A DNA stretch of 64,000 bases from assembly GCA_017983795.1 (NCBI GenBank), contig JAGOAS010000018.1, positions 38,129 to 102,128 on the forward strand, given 5' to 3'. This document shows positions 4,157-11,086 of this stretch, piece by piece. A model generated the notes under the pieces. It had not been told where the DNA came from, ran no database searches, and worked only from the letters and a program-made list of their open reading frames with translations. The position numbers and the translations under genes are program-made. Origin of the DNA: Piscinibacter sp. (GTDB taxonomy: Bacteria > Pseudomonadota > Gammaproteobacteria > Burkholderiales > Burkholderiaceae_C). Every line of letters begins with the position of its first letter. Within the stretch, counting starts at the first letter, position 1.

Positions 4157-4173
4157 GCCGCGCGCCGGCTCAG
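4153..4173. terminator. perfect hairpin spanning both stop codons of convergent genes
   Basis: CTGAGCCG / CGGCTCAG form an 8-bp perfect stem around a 5-base loop. The stem contains the TGA of the lipoprotein gene and the TCA (reverse TGA) of the M15 peptidase gene. No T tract follows on either strand, so it may stall or protect both 3' ends rather than act as a classical intrinsic terminator. Confidence 0.45.
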
Positions 4174-4745
4174 GCCTCGTTGGGGCGCAAGCCGTCGACG
4201 TAGACGAGCCGCCCGCTCGCCGCATCGACCACATAGCTCAGCACCTGGCGCCGGTTGCGGCCGGCGCCGGGCGGCAGCAGCGAGACGTGCACCCAGCCCG
4301 AGTTCGGGCCTTTGCGCGGGTCGTAGCACTCGCAGATGATCTGGTCGAAGTCGGCCAGCGTGGAGCTGGCCCAGCGTGCCAGCTCCAGCGTCGGCTTGGC
4401 GACGATCTCGACGTCGCAGGCACGGCCTTCGGTGTGCTGGCTGGTCGAGATCCAGCTCGAGGGCTTGCCCTTGAGCGAACGCTCCAGCGCCTGCGAACGG
4501 AACACGCTGTTGGGCGTGAAGCCGCCGAAGGCCTCGCGCATCGGATCGAGCACCTGGCGCGCCAGATGCACCGCGCTGCGCAGCACCTTGTCGTCGGGGA
4601 TGCGGTTGGCGATGCGCTGGCGATCGGCGGTTTCGCTGACCGTCAGCTCGTAGAGCAGGAAGTACTTCGCGATGCGGTCCTGCGGATCGAGCTCGGCGAT
4701 GCGCAGCTGCGCGAGCGGCGTGCTGGAAAGGTCCCGGCCGGCCAT
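4170..4745 (-). CDS. M15-family zinc peptidase (D-Ala-D-Ala carboxypeptidase-like)
   Basis: This 191-residue protein carries the M15 zinc signature: His104 and Asp111 in STSQHTEGRACDVE and His153 in GWVHVS, with a candidate catalytic Glu139 in QIICEC. There is no signal peptide. Relatives of this size are phage endolysins and M15_3 peptidases that cut peptidoglycan cross-bridges; a cytosolic or effector role is equally possible here. It starts 17 bases after the stop of the giant CHAT gene behind a GAGGGAG ribosome site, so it is very probably in the same operon. The pairing with a CHAT protease is unusual. The substrate is unproven. Confidence 0.8.
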   Translation of the reverse strand: MAGRDLSSTPLAQLRIAELDPQDRIAKYFLLYELTVSETADRQRIANRIPDDKVLRSAVHLARQVLDPMREAFGGFTPNSVFRSQALERSLKGKPSSWISTSQHTEGRACDVEIVAKPTLELARWASSTLADFDQIICECYDPRKGPNSGWVHVSLLPPGAGRNRRQVLSYVVDAASGRLVYVDGLRPNEA

Positions 4746-4762
4746 GGTCGATCTCCCTCGGG

Positions 4763-7700
4763 TCACATCGAGCGCCGCACCGCGGCGAGCGCCTCGCGCA
4801 CCGGCTGCGGCCAGCGCGCCTCGCCCGCGCCGGTCAGCTCGGCGAGGAAGTCCAGGTGCTCCTGGATCGAAGCCACCTCGCGCGGGCTGGCGCCGCGCGC
4901 GAAGGCGGCGGCATAGAGCTCGGCGGCGGCGCGGCCCAGCCCTGCGGCGTCGGCCTTGGCATCGTCGGCCGCCAGCAGCAAGCGCACGATCTGCAGATCG
5001 CCGAGCCCGGTGGCCAGCCACAGCGAGGGTGATTCCTCGTGGCGCGCGCGCGTGGAATCCACGTGGCGCTCGGTCATCTCGGCCAGCGCCGGCAGCCAGT
5101 CGCCGGCGGCGCGCTCGGGGTCGAGCCGGCGCAGCAGCAGGCAGGCCACCGCCCAGTTGTTGAAGGCGTAGACGTCGTCGCCGCCCTTGCGCTCGAGCGC
5201 CTCGCGGTAGTACTGCGCCATGTTGAGCAGCGCCTCGACGCGCGGCCGGCCTGACTGCACCCAGGCCAGGCGCTTGCACGCGCTGCCCAGCAGCAGCAGC
5301 CGCTCGTCGGTGGTGGCGCGCGCGTTGATGAGGTCGAGCTGGTAGAGCGCGTGCTCGATCTGCTCGGCCAGCTCGGCGCGCCGCACCTGCAGCGCCGCGC
5401 TCTCCGCGTCGCCGCCGCGCGCACGCAGCGCCGACCACGCCGCGGCGGCGAGCCGCACCTGGTAGTTGGCGAACTGTTCGGCGGCGCGCACCGGGCAGTC
5501 GCCCTGGCTGGAGTGCAGCGCGCGGTCCAGCCACTCGGAAGCCTCCTCGAACAGCTTGCCCTCGCCGTAGGCGAAGCCGAGCGAGGCGCAGACGTCGGCA
5601 CGCTTCATCCACTCGGCGCGCGCCGCCTCGGGCACGCGCGCCAGCAGCGCATCGACGCGCTCGCGCAGGTCTTGCGCGATGGCGGCCTCGTCGCGCTCGC
5701 GGCGGCGGCTGATCATGCCGATCGATTCGGTGAGGTTGTCGAGCTCGGTGGCCAGCTCCGAGGGCGCGAAGAAGGCCGGCGGCGCGACGCGGTCCAGCCC
5801 CGTGCCTTCGCGCACCAGCCGGAAGCCGGGGTCGCCGTAGCACTGGTAGGCGCCCCAGGTGTTGACGCCCGGGTTCGCGCTCCAGGTCTCGGCGCGCGCG
5901 CGGCGCACCGCGTCGCCGAACTCGCTGCCGGCCAGCATGCGGCCGTAGAAGGCCTCGGCGAAGGTCAGCGCGGCCGCGTCGTCCACCGCCCAGCCGGCGC
6001 ACACCACGGCGCGCACGCCCATGCGGATGAACTCGACGCCGAGGTTGGCCGCGAGGCGGTTGAACTGCGCCGAGCCGGCGCCGGTGTTGCCGAGGTGGCA
6101 GCAGTTGATGAACACGAGCTCGGGCACGTGGCGCATCTGCTTGATGTCGCCCGGTGTGAGGAAGGTGTCGCGCCCGATCACCATGCCCGAGACGGTCTTG
6201 CCGTCGCCGATCACGAACTCGTGCTCGCCATGGCCGGCCAGGTGCAGCACGCGCCAGGCGCGCGCGTGCAGGTTGTCGACGATCTCGTTGGCCTGCGCGT
6301 CGATCGCCTCGCCGATGGCGTAGCCGGCGCGAGCGAACAGCTCGCGCACGCGCTCGGCCTCGCGGCGCGCGCCGGGCAGGTCGGGGAAGGTGGCCCAGCC
6401 GTTCAGGTCGGGGTTGCCGACCACCAGCACGGTATTCTCGAAGGCGTGCAGCGGCTCGATGCGGTATTCGCTGCTCTTGAGCTGGCGCACGATGCCGCTG
6501 GTCACCGCGGGCGGGCGGCCCTGGTGGCTCCAGCGGTCTTCGAGCAGCTCCCAGGGGAAGCGCGCCGCCGCCTCGTCGAGCAGGATCACGATGGCGCGCT
6601 GGTCGGGCGAGCTCTGCTTGAGGCGCTGCGGCAGCAGCATCTCGAACAGCGTCTTGGAGACCTCGCTGTTGGCGGTGGCGCTGCCGCAGGCCTGGGCGAT
6701 GAAGCGGTCCGCCAGGCGCAGCTGCCCCTCGGCGAGCGACTCCTCGGCGCGCGCGCGGTCGGCGGTGGTGACGAAGCGCAGGCAGTCGGCCTTGCGGTCT
6801 TCGGTGACCTCGATGCGCTGCCACCACGACTGGTCGGCGTCGAAGCGGCTGCGGCTGCGGCGGCCCTCGCCCGCGATCACCGTGCCCTCCTTCCACAGGA
6901 TGCGCGCGCCGAGCTCGGTGCTCTCGGCGAGCACGGCGAGCTCCTTGGCGGCGGCGATGGCGAGATCCTCGAACAGCTCGATGAACTCGACCTGGTCGAT
7001 CAGCACCTGCTGGTCGAGCTTGGCGTCTTCGAGCTTGCGGTTGGCGGCCAGCGCGCCGCGCAGCAGTGATTCCAGCGAATCGCGCAGCTGCAGGCTGTTG
7101 GCGCCCGTGCCCACCAGCAGGCAGCTGACGCTGGCGCTGATGCGCGCCAGCGGCCCGCTCGCGCCGGGGCCGCGCGCGGTGGACTTGTAGGTGTGCAGGC
7201 GCAAGGCGTATTCGAGCAGCGCATCGCGCGAGCCGGTCTCGAGCCGCGTCGGCGAGAGCTCGCCCACCTGCCCGAGGCCGACCACCAGCGCGCCCATGGG
7301 CTGGCGGCTCGGGTCGTCGTTGAAGAACACCGCGTGCGTGCCGTGCGGGCCGGGGTAGAGGCCGAGGTCGCGGCGCCGCATCAGCGGGCCCTGCGCCTGG
7401 TCGCCCTTCATCTGGCGATCGAGCGCCTCCTCGGCGCTGACGATGGTGTCGCCGGCGTAGTGGCCCACCAGCACCGGATAGCGCGCGTAGCGCAGGTCGC
7501 CATGGCGGATGCTCACGCGCAGCTGCGCCGAGCGCACCGCGGCCGCGCCGCGGCGGCGCGGCCGGCTGCCGCCGAAGGCCAGGCCACGCACGGTGGCGGC
7601 GTCGGGCAAGTCGTCGGCCACCGGCAGCGGCGGCAGCACGAAGCGCTCGGCCTCGGCGCCGGCGGCGCGCGCACGGCCCGGCGGCGTGCTCGGCAGCTGG

Positions 7701-10354: not shown

Positions 10355-10414
10355 GGCTGCTCCTGCGAGGCAGCCGATGACAGCACCGAGGCCGCGGGGG
10401 GTCAACCCCTGACA

Positions 10415-10480
10415 TAGCCCCCCAGTCGCTTCGCTCCTGCCCCCAAGGGGCGCCGTCCGGCTTGGGGCGGCCCGGCGCCG
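10415..10480. repeat. candidate dispersed intergenic repeat (GC-rich, palindromic)
   Basis: The gap between the SLOG and CHAT genes holds a stretch beginning GCCCCCCAGTCGCTTCGCTC, followed by CCCCCAAGGGG and a second CTTGGGG arm. It can fold on itself. From memory it resembles a short repeat scattered between genes in Comamonadaceae-type genomes. Only one copy is in this window, so repeat status cannot be shown here. Confidence 0.4.
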
Positions 10481-10498
10481 GACAACCGGGACGAAGGC

Positions 10499-11086
10499 CT
10501 ACAGCGTGTGGGTGTCGATCCAGCGCACCTCGCCATGCGCACGCCGCACCGCCTCGACCATGTGGCGCGTGCCGCCCGGCCCGTCGCCACCGCCGCCGTC
10601 CCACAGCGTGATGAAGCGCAGCCGCGTCGCGCCGAAGGCGAGCGCGGTGTCAAGCAGCCAGCGGTTGGCGCGCTCGAAGGCATCCTCGCCGGGGCGCAGC
10701 GGGCCCAGCACCGCATCGGCCACTTGCGGCGCCTCGTGCAGGCGCGCCTTCAGCGCCAGGTAGCGTGCGCGCCAGCGCGGGCCGTCTTCGCAGGGCAGCA
10801 TGGAGCGTTCGATGAACTCGTGCTCCGGCAGCGGCAGCAGCAACCGCACCGGCACGCCGCGCGCGAGGCAGGCCTCGGCGAAGAGCAGGTCGCCGCCGGC
10901 CGCGCCCTGCGTCAACGCGAGATCGGCGGCGCCGGCGGCCAGCCGTTCGAGTTCGATCGCGATGCGTTGCGCGGCGGCCGCCTCCTTGGCCGCGGGAAAG
11001 CGCGGCAGCGGCCGATCAGGCGCGTCGATCAGGTGGCCGGAGAACAGCAGCACCTGGCGCGGCGCCGCGGCGGAGGGGGTGGGCAT
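10499..11086 (-). CDS. SLOG/LOG-like Rossmannoid nucleotide-sensor protein
   Basis: This 195-residue cytosolic protein starts VLLFSGHLIDAP, then TQGAAGGDLLFAEACLARGV and RLLLPLPEHEF, and later FITLWDGGGGDGPGG and IDTHTL. The first strand ending in 'SGH', the glycine-rich GGD turn (64-66) and the following 'EACLARG.PV.L.LP' strand match SLOG (LOG-like) domains, which bind nucleotides or nucleotide-derived signals in conflict systems. I recognise this by pattern; no search was possible. The ATG at 11086 begins the conserved core; an in-frame ATG at 11101 is an alternative. It is upstream of and on the same strand as the CHAT gene, 144 bases away, and so probably supplies the sensing step. Confidence 0.65.
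   Translation of the reverse strand: MPTPSAAAPRQVLLFSGHLIDAPDRPLPRFPAAKEAAAAQRIAIELERLAAGAADLALTQGAAGGDLLFAEACLARGVPVRLLLPLPEHEFIERSMLPCEDGPRWRARYLALKARLHEAPQVADAVLGPLRPGEDAFERANRWLLDTALAFGATRLRFITLWDGGGGDGPGGTRHMVEAVRRAHGEVRWIDTHTL

What the first reader, a model, noticed from the sequence alone, without database searches (positions are those of the whole stretch)
4170..11086. SLOG sensor - double hydrolase/CHAT protease - M15 peptidase block: candidate undescribed conflict or stress system
Seen: three same-strand genes encoding a SLOG-like protein, an 1863-residue protein with two Ser-hydrolase domains plus a CHAT domain with His and Cys in place, and an M15 zinc peptidase 17 bases behind it. 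Known: CHAT proteases act as triggered proteases (Craspase, gasdermin-associated proteases), and SLOG domains sense nucleotide signals in biological conflict systems. Inference: a nucleotide signal is sensed by SLOG, activates CHAT, and lipid/ester hydrolysis plus cell-wall cutting follow, which would be an abortive-infection-like architecture. I know of no named system with this exact set.
Basis: partly seen in the sequence, partly recalled or inferred. Interest (0 to 1): 0.85.

Follow-up and report, generated by a model that had tools for sequence, protein, structure and literature searches.

The report
Caspase-like lysis operon with endolysin
Three neighbouring bacterial genes encode a nucleotide-binding-type protein, a giant protein that joins two lipase-like domains to a caspase-like protease, and a wall-cutting enzyme resembling phage endolysins; they look like an unstudied switch by which a bacterium could burst itself, perhaps to stop a virus.

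Summary
P0003 (10499-11086) has a SLOG fold (AlphaFold2 plus Foldseek). P0001 (4170-4745) is an M15 zinc peptidase matching a phage endolysin family, with no evident signal peptide.

The set recurs. Of the 80 closest of 499 relatives, 65 had enough flank: a wall hydrolase lies within 1.2 kb in 25, SLOG within 6 kb in 20, both in 12. Four endolysin-type families (three folds) occur beside the giant gene. A caspase gene is the commonest partner (26 of 65); none was found in the window's genome. TIR genes adjoin several relatives. But 25 of 65, mostly distant, have none of the three partners, and the window is no clear defence island.

Most likely it is a suicidal-lysis module of a nucleotide-signalled conflict system: signal, CHAT activation, membrane lipolysis, wall cutting. 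Signal, order of events and phage defence are inferred. New variant of a known kind.

The parts
10499..11086 (-). Stand-alone SLOG-fold gene (P0003, 195 aa). Elsewhere the same domain is the C-terminus of ~650-700 aa proteins with TPR-S
   Evidence: AlphaFold2 pLDDT 93.4; Foldseek/VIA match YpsA, DprA, ShosA, LOG, TRPM2; fused form L040 with TPR-S 6.9e-16
4763..10354 (-). Giant protein P0002 (1863 aa): hydrolase - hydrolase - macro fold - CHAT - TPR-S
8846..9769 (-). Alpha/beta-hydrolase 1 (P0002 ~196-503; DUF7379; nucleophile motif HSRGG at S277, H499)
   Evidence: Pfam DUF7379 6.2e-30; S277 in 117 and H499 in 118 of 118 rows
7715..8698 (-). Alpha/beta-hydrolase 2 (P0002 ~553-880; LCAT/PGAP1-like; HSMGG at S661, D836, H859)
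   Evidence: Pfam LCAT 6.5e-7, PGAP1 1e-5; S661 in 114, D836 and H859 in 118 of 118 rows
6902..7531 (-). Macro-fold domain (P0002 ~942-1151), nearest in sequence to the N-terminal domain of M17 aminopeptidases; ligand unknown
5831..6664 (-). CHAT protease domain (P0002 1231-1508; H1375, C1418/C1419)
   Evidence: Pfam CHAT 2.8e-31; H1375 118, C1418 116, C1419 118 of 118 rows
5147..5551 (-). TPR-S domain (P0002 1602-1736)
   Evidence: Pfam PF20308 7.9e-9, over cut-off; the only over-cut-off TPR-S in the genome
4170..4745 (-). M15 zinc peptidase, endolysin-like (P0001, 191 aa), no evident signal peptide
   Evidence: Pfam M15_3 1.4e-5; phrog_894 endolysin 7.3e-22; H104/D111/E139/H153 in 31 of 31 rows and N-terminal hydropathy

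Best explanation
A suicidal-lysis module of a nucleotide/NAD-signalled bacterial conflict system. Shown (sequence and structure level): a SLOG-fold protein; a giant protein with two alpha/beta-hydrolases, a macro-fold domain, a CHAT protease and TPR-S; and a cytoplasmic-looking, endolysin-like M15 peptidase, kept together across genomes. Inferred: stress or infection raises a nucleotide-type signal (for instance from a TIR protein elsewhere in the genome); SLOG, macro fold and/or TPR-S bind or relay it; CHAT becomes active and cuts itself or a partner; the lipase-like domains are released and damage the inner membrane, doing the job a holin does in phage lysis; the endolysin then reaches and cuts the wall, and the cell bursts. 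In many relatives a separate caspase gene supplies a further protease step, which this genome lacks.
For: Domains and near-invariant catalytic residues. SLOG fold; macro fold. Endolysin-type partners of four families, three folds: M15_3 (P0001, phrog_894, 7.3e-22), LysM-like plus M15_4 (L037, phrog_17001, 2.1e-14), Amidase_2 (L039, phrog_1794, 3.4e-35), GH108 (L142, phrog_315, 1.9e-50). P0001-type M15 is same-strand and within 500 bp downstream in 31 of 31 loci that have it near. SLOG+wall hydrolase in 12 of 65 loci. SLOG and P0002 genes co-occur: 8 of 11 SLOG genomes against 16 of 139 others in the family sample, 11 of 25 against 11 of 324 in the order sample; Fisher 1.7e-5 and 1e-8 (not corrected for phylogeny). 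Distances of P0002 and its neighbours correlate: M15 r 0.83 (n 29), SLOG 0.62 (n 28), caspase 0.73 (n 45), 0 of 2000 permutations each. TIR_2 genes adjoin relatives L039, L157, L167, L180, L218, L219, L225; L043 has TIR and AAA/MoxR-like genes; L203 DUF4062-nSTAND1. Three TIR genes elsewhere in this genome. No signal peptide by hydropathy for P0001 and its partners, with secreted controls scoring higher.
Against: No experiment. 40 of 65 loci have no wall hydrolase detected within 1.2 kb and 25 of 65 have none of caspase, SLOG or wall hydrolase, so the endolysin step cannot be general; in the family sample it is 3 of 22 and in the order sample 5 of 18 loci, plus L142. No TIR or other signal maker in the locus. 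The macro fold is M17_N-like; binding of ADP-ribose is not shown. The window is not a clear defence island and relatives are rare on plasmids (8 of 72,556 records). The distance correlations do not separate co-function from shared descent.
Confidence: 0.5

Rival explanations
1. Programmed lysis for release rather than defence: the module lets a fraction of cells burst to free gene transfer agents, DNA or matrix, as LypABC, which resembles a CARD-NLR defence system, does in Caulobacter.
For: Defence-like domains can drive host lysis with the lytic effector still unknown (PMC13236601, abstract and passages). Locus sits at a conserved chromosomal site among ordinary genes, and relatives are rare on plasmids.
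Against: TIR, caspase and STAND neighbours in relatives and patchy presence (24 of 150, 22 of 349 genomes) fit conflict systems better. No search for gene transfer agent genes was made.
Confidence: 0.17
2. Interbacterial or envelope-remodelling enzymes: lipase and wall peptidase are cargo or housekeeping factors exported to neighbours or the periplasm.
For: Lipases and wall amidases/peptidases are common secreted antibacterial effectors (recalled).
Against: No signal peptide or transmembrane segment by hydropathy in P0001 and P0002; CHAT, macro fold and TPR-S are regulatory-type domains; no immunity-type partner recurs in the neighbourhoods. Secretion-system genes were not searched for specifically.
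Confidence: 0.1
3. Guard or decoy: the endolysin-like protein is bait or a regulator through which the giant CHAT protein senses a phage lysis step, and it does not itself cut the wall.
For: P0001 matches a phage endolysin family and endolysins of different families fill the slot.
Against: Zinc ligands and E139 are identical in 31 of 31 rows, which argues for an active enzyme.
Confidence: 0.08
4. P0003 is only a neighbour and not part of the module.
For: Here a 144-bp gap with repeat-like sequence separates it from P0002, and in same-genus G091 it lies 4.4 kb off with other genes between. In 3 of 11 family genomes and 14 of 25 order genomes SLOG occurs without P0002.
Against: SLOG is close by in 20 of 65 loci, in different orders (upstream, or downstream of M15 in Methyloversatilis), and is fused to TPR-S elsewhere.
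Confidence: 0.15

Closest known systems
TPR-S / NAD-derived-signal conflict systems (Burroughs and Aravind 2020, recalled; paper not held)
   Same: TPR-S domain at the end of an effector protein; caspase, TIR and DRHyd-like companions in relatives; SLOG domain fused to TPR-S in relatives
   Different: Endolysin-type partner; two hydrolases, macro fold and CHAT in one chain; no signal maker in this locus
Caspase plus alpha/beta-hydrolase pairs of MoxR-vWA (VMAP) ternary systems (PMC7159879, passages)
   Same: Caspase-superfamily peptidase always paired with an alpha/beta-hydrolase gene
   Different: Here both are in one protein and MoxR/vWA genes are absent; one relative (L043) has an AAA/MoxR-like gene
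Thoeris (SIR2-SLOG ThsA and TM-macro ThsA; PMC11204291, passages)
   Same: SLOG or macro domains as nucleotide sensors of an abortive effector
   Different: No ThsA or ThsB here; both fold types occur in one module, on separate proteins; output is hydrolase, protease and wall enzyme
Craspase (Csx29 TPR-CHAT with Cas7-11; PMC10028731, passages)
   Same: TPR plus CHAT protease as a switchable protease
   Different: No Cas7-11; TPR-S lies after CHAT; hydrolases fused in the same chain
LypABC lysis system (PMC13236601, abstract and passages)
   Same: Defence-like peptidase system that causes host lysis
   Different: LypABC has no known lytic effector and different domains (trypsin-like, NLR-like)

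Membership tests
SLOG superfamily | SLOG Rossmann-like fold | tested here: met
   Foldseek and VIA best rows are YpsA, DprA, ShosA, Moco carrier, LOG, TRPM
SLOG superfamily | binds a nucleotide ligand | not testable with these tools
   no ligand assay; pocket not modelled
CHAT proteases | CHAT domain with His and Cys | tested here: met
   Pfam 2.8e-31; H1375 118, C1418 116, C1419 118 of 118
M15 peptidases | zinc ligands His, Asp, His and catalytic acid | tested here: met
   H104, D111, H153, E139 in 31 of 31 rows; PF08291 over cut-off. Assignment of roles recalled
Phage endolysins (phrog_894) | profile match | tested here: met
   7.3e-22
Phage endolysins (phrog_894) | wall-cutting activity | not testable with these tools
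   needs assay
Macro domain superfamily | macro fold | tested here: met
Macro domain superfamily | binds ADP-ribose | not testable with these tools
   M17_N-like; ligand unknown
TPR-S conflict systems | TPR-S domain | tested here: met
   PF20308 over cut-off in P0002
TPR-S conflict systems | linked maker of a NAD-derived signal | tested here: inconclusive
   none in the locus; three TIR genes elsewhere in the genome
Thoeris | adjacent ThsA and ThsB | tested here: not met
   Pfam and PADLOC of P0001-P0003 show neither; the nearest TIR gene found is on another contig
Craspase | Cas7-11 (gRAMP) partner beside TPR-CHAT | tested here: not met
   neighbouring genes are SLOG and M15
MoxR-vWA ternary systems | MoxR and vWA genes beside the effector | tested here: not met
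   not among the adjacent genes

The most novel reading that the evidence does not exclude
A bacterial counterpart of lytic cell death built on phage parts: an ADP-ribose-type signal is read by macro-fold, TPR-S and SLOG domains, unlocks a CHAT protease, and through it two lipases that act as the holin and a captured endolysin that acts as the lysin. Endolysins of different families have been captured repeatedly into the same slot, and the cassette between conserved flanks is exchanged even within one genus.
Probability: 0.35. Interest if true: 0.9.

Novelty: new variant of a known kind. Interest (0 to 1): 0.74.

Why it matters
If true, it gives a complete route from nucleotide signal to cell bursting inside one operon, and shows bacterial immunity or self-killing systems recruiting phage-type endolysins again and again.

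Tried and rejected
Single-sequence searches of P0003 in Pfam, NCBIfam, PADLOC, PHROGs and PDB gave nothing; only the structure placed it. PDB sequence search of P0001 gave only weak, unrelated names, best E 0.076, and of P0002 weak lipase and phospholipase hits, best 0.016. PADLOC gave nothing better than E 0.04 for the three proteins. Mobile element idea: only 8 of 72,556 plasmid records hold a relative of P0002, all under 36% identity; phage records were not searched. Defence island idea: PADLOC on 62 of the 66 called window genes (the three core genes were done; the partial gene 1-255 was not done) gave 35 families, 25 of them shown; the clear hit is PDC-S02 at 37049-37951; hits to mad3 and mad8 (up to 2.1e-24) were not traced to genes; the S1 protease 355-1692 matches RT-Protease_XI only over its protease part. 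Chance adjacency was rejected on recurrence. In VIA and Foldseek lists for the macro-fold fragment, several top rows are designed serine hydrolases (OSH55); I take these as macro-like scaffolds (recalled). Residues 216-301 of that fragment are of low confidence or untested. The N-terminal region of L040-type fused proteins looks like a DRHyd/nucleoside deoxyribosyltransferase domain by eye only; Pfam gave no hit there. The protein behind the L041 giant gene looks SIR2-like by eye only; in L180 SIR2_2 is below cut-off. Downstream genes of L182 and L188 match only a PHROG of unknown function. Paper search for TPR-S as a word gave 2 irrelevant papers.

Rows dropped before counts: 15 of 80, 5 of 27 and 2 of 20 loci were left out for short flanks; the window itself (L057) and L054, both with SLOG, fell out that way, and L043 has SLOG at 6.3 kb, just over the limit. 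The 80 loci are the closest of 499 and so favour the window's subtype; five are Methyloversatilis.
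Full report
What is there. The three minus-strand ORFs are exactly as described. The window lies in a 4.24 Mb genome, 99.73% complete in 45 contigs. Its name is not given; the closest named relative of the locus is L149, a Pseudomonadota metagenome bin with 85% identity in its best segment, and a Rubrivivax bin (L154) has the same gene order.

P0001 is an endolysin-like M15 peptidase: phrog_894 endolysin at 7.3e-22, Zn-site residues identical in 31 of 31 rows, and no N-terminal hydrophobic stretch comparable to three secreted controls (1.17 against 1.94-2.78; P0001-type relatives -0.28 to 1.65). 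P0002 has no 19-residue window above 1.6. A wall enzyme without export needs a broken membrane, which two lipase-like domains next door could provide; this is inference.

Is it a unit? Relatives of P0002 are in 24 of 150 family genomes and 22 of 349 order genomes; P0003 in 11 of 150 and 25 of 349; both in 8 and 11. Fisher gives 1.7e-5 and 1e-8, without correction for phylogeny. Of these, 65 have at least 1.5 kb upstream and 1 kb downstream. Within 6 kb: caspase 26, SLOG 20, P0001-type M15 23, TIR-model hit 7, DRHyd-like/TPR-S-model hit 12. A wall hydrolase lies within 1.2 kb in 25; wall hydrolase and SLOG both in 12; 4 of these 12 also have the caspase. None of caspase, SLOG or wall hydrolase is found in 25 of 65, mostly distant relatives. 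The other samples are lower: family 22 usable loci, caspase 9, SLOG 2, wall hydrolase 3; order 18 usable loci, caspase 7, SLOG 3, wall hydrolase 5. So the full set marks a subtype and not the whole family.

Gene orders. SLOG-CHAT-M15 as in the window: L149, L154. Fused SLOG, caspase, CHAT, M15: L163, L165, L184; L168 the same without caspase; L171 has stand-alone SLOG, caspase, CHAT, M15. TIR-CHAT-M15-SLOG: five Methyloversatilis loci, L167, L173, L175, L183, L216. Caspase-CHAT-M15: for example Denitromonas L150, L151 and Rhodoferax L161, L166. The P0001-type M15 is always on the same strand within 500 bp downstream (31 of 31).

The slot for a wall hydrolase is filled by four endolysin-type families of three folds: M15_3 (P0001 type), LysM-like plus M15_4 (L037, L136, L137, L143; L208 is a duplicate of L137), Amidase_2 (L039; L204 by local profile only) and GH108 (L142). 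M15_3 and M15_4 are branches of one peptidase family. This repeated, partly independent recruitment is my main reason for reading the output as lysis.

Conflict-system context. TIR_2 genes adjoin L039, L157, L167, L180, L218, L219 and L225; L043 has a P0003 relative, TIR and AAA/MoxR-like genes upstream; L203 has DUF4062-nSTAND1. In the window's genome the only Peptidase_C14 match is P0002's own CHAT domain (24 of 26 genomes searched had a match of some kind), so no separate caspase was detected. Three TIR genes lie on other contigs.

Cassette exchange. Against the same-genus genome G091 (L037), window 1-4147 is 80.9% and 10510-12991 (including SLOG) 78.1% identical in DNA, while the P0002 stretch between aligns only in patches at 65-72% and its protein is 33% identical. 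In G091 the interval holds a caspase, a different giant CHAT protein and a different M15 type. Neighbour distances track those of P0002 (M15 r 0.83, SLOG 0.62, caspase 0.73), as expected of genes inherited or moved together; this does not prove joint function.

Comparison. Kaur and others (PMC7159879; passages) report that in VMAP systems a caspase domain always has a neighbouring alpha/beta-hydrolase gene, that TIR, DRHyd and SLOG are related signal-type folds, and that one EAD1 system includes lysozyme- and papain-like wall enzymes. The double hydrolase-CHAT protein thus fuses a known pairing, and wall attack has been predicted in another system. Thoeris effectors use SLOG or macro domains to sense NAD-derived nucleotides (PMC11204291; passages). 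TPR-S as a sensor of NAD-derived signals is recalled from Burroughs and Aravind 2020, which is not held. LypABC shows a defence-like peptidase system driving host lysis (PMC13236601; abstract and passages). I found no paper describing this set in the searches listed under why it matters; the library is partial.

Verdict. A real, recurring gene set; a new variant of known conflict-system kinds whose output is most likely cell lysis. Confidence about 0.5 for the mechanism as a whole. Shown: domains, folds, conserved residues, recurrence. Inferred: signal, activation order, membrane step, defence role.

Noticed in passing
window 37046-37951: DUF1016/PDDEXK-type gene, PADLOC PDC-S02 at 9.4e-136, matched from profile position 40 on, so its 5' end looks missing or misplaced.
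   Followed up: partly
window 355-3447: S1-type protease, FHA-like and SDR genes left of the locus are shared with the giant CHAT locus in G091, G046 and partly G090, so the site is an old chromosomal position.
   Followed up: partly
window 10393-10487: The gap between P0003 and P0002 holds a sequence that also occurs at another place in L149 (87% identity), a possible dispersed intergenic repeat.
   Followed up: no
L037 2579-5566: A 995-aa protein with an N-terminal caspase domain (5.1e-7) on the opposite strand between SLOG and the caspase-CHAT genes of same-genus G091.
   Followed up: no
L041, L043, L056: One genome (G133) holds three giant-CHAT relatives with different neighbours: a protein that looks SIR2-like by eye, a TIR/AAA set, and a third, partial-length one.
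   Followed up: partly
L182 14403-15545 and L188 11546-12757: Related genes directly behind CHAT that match only phrog_30036 of unknown function; possibly a further wall-enzyme type.
   Followed up: partly
window 32358-33245: Protein starting MNKLEIHPPSDLNSPTLAPNLGGFGIRFLAEGDSWFTVGA, no PADLOC hit; family not identified.
   Followed up: no
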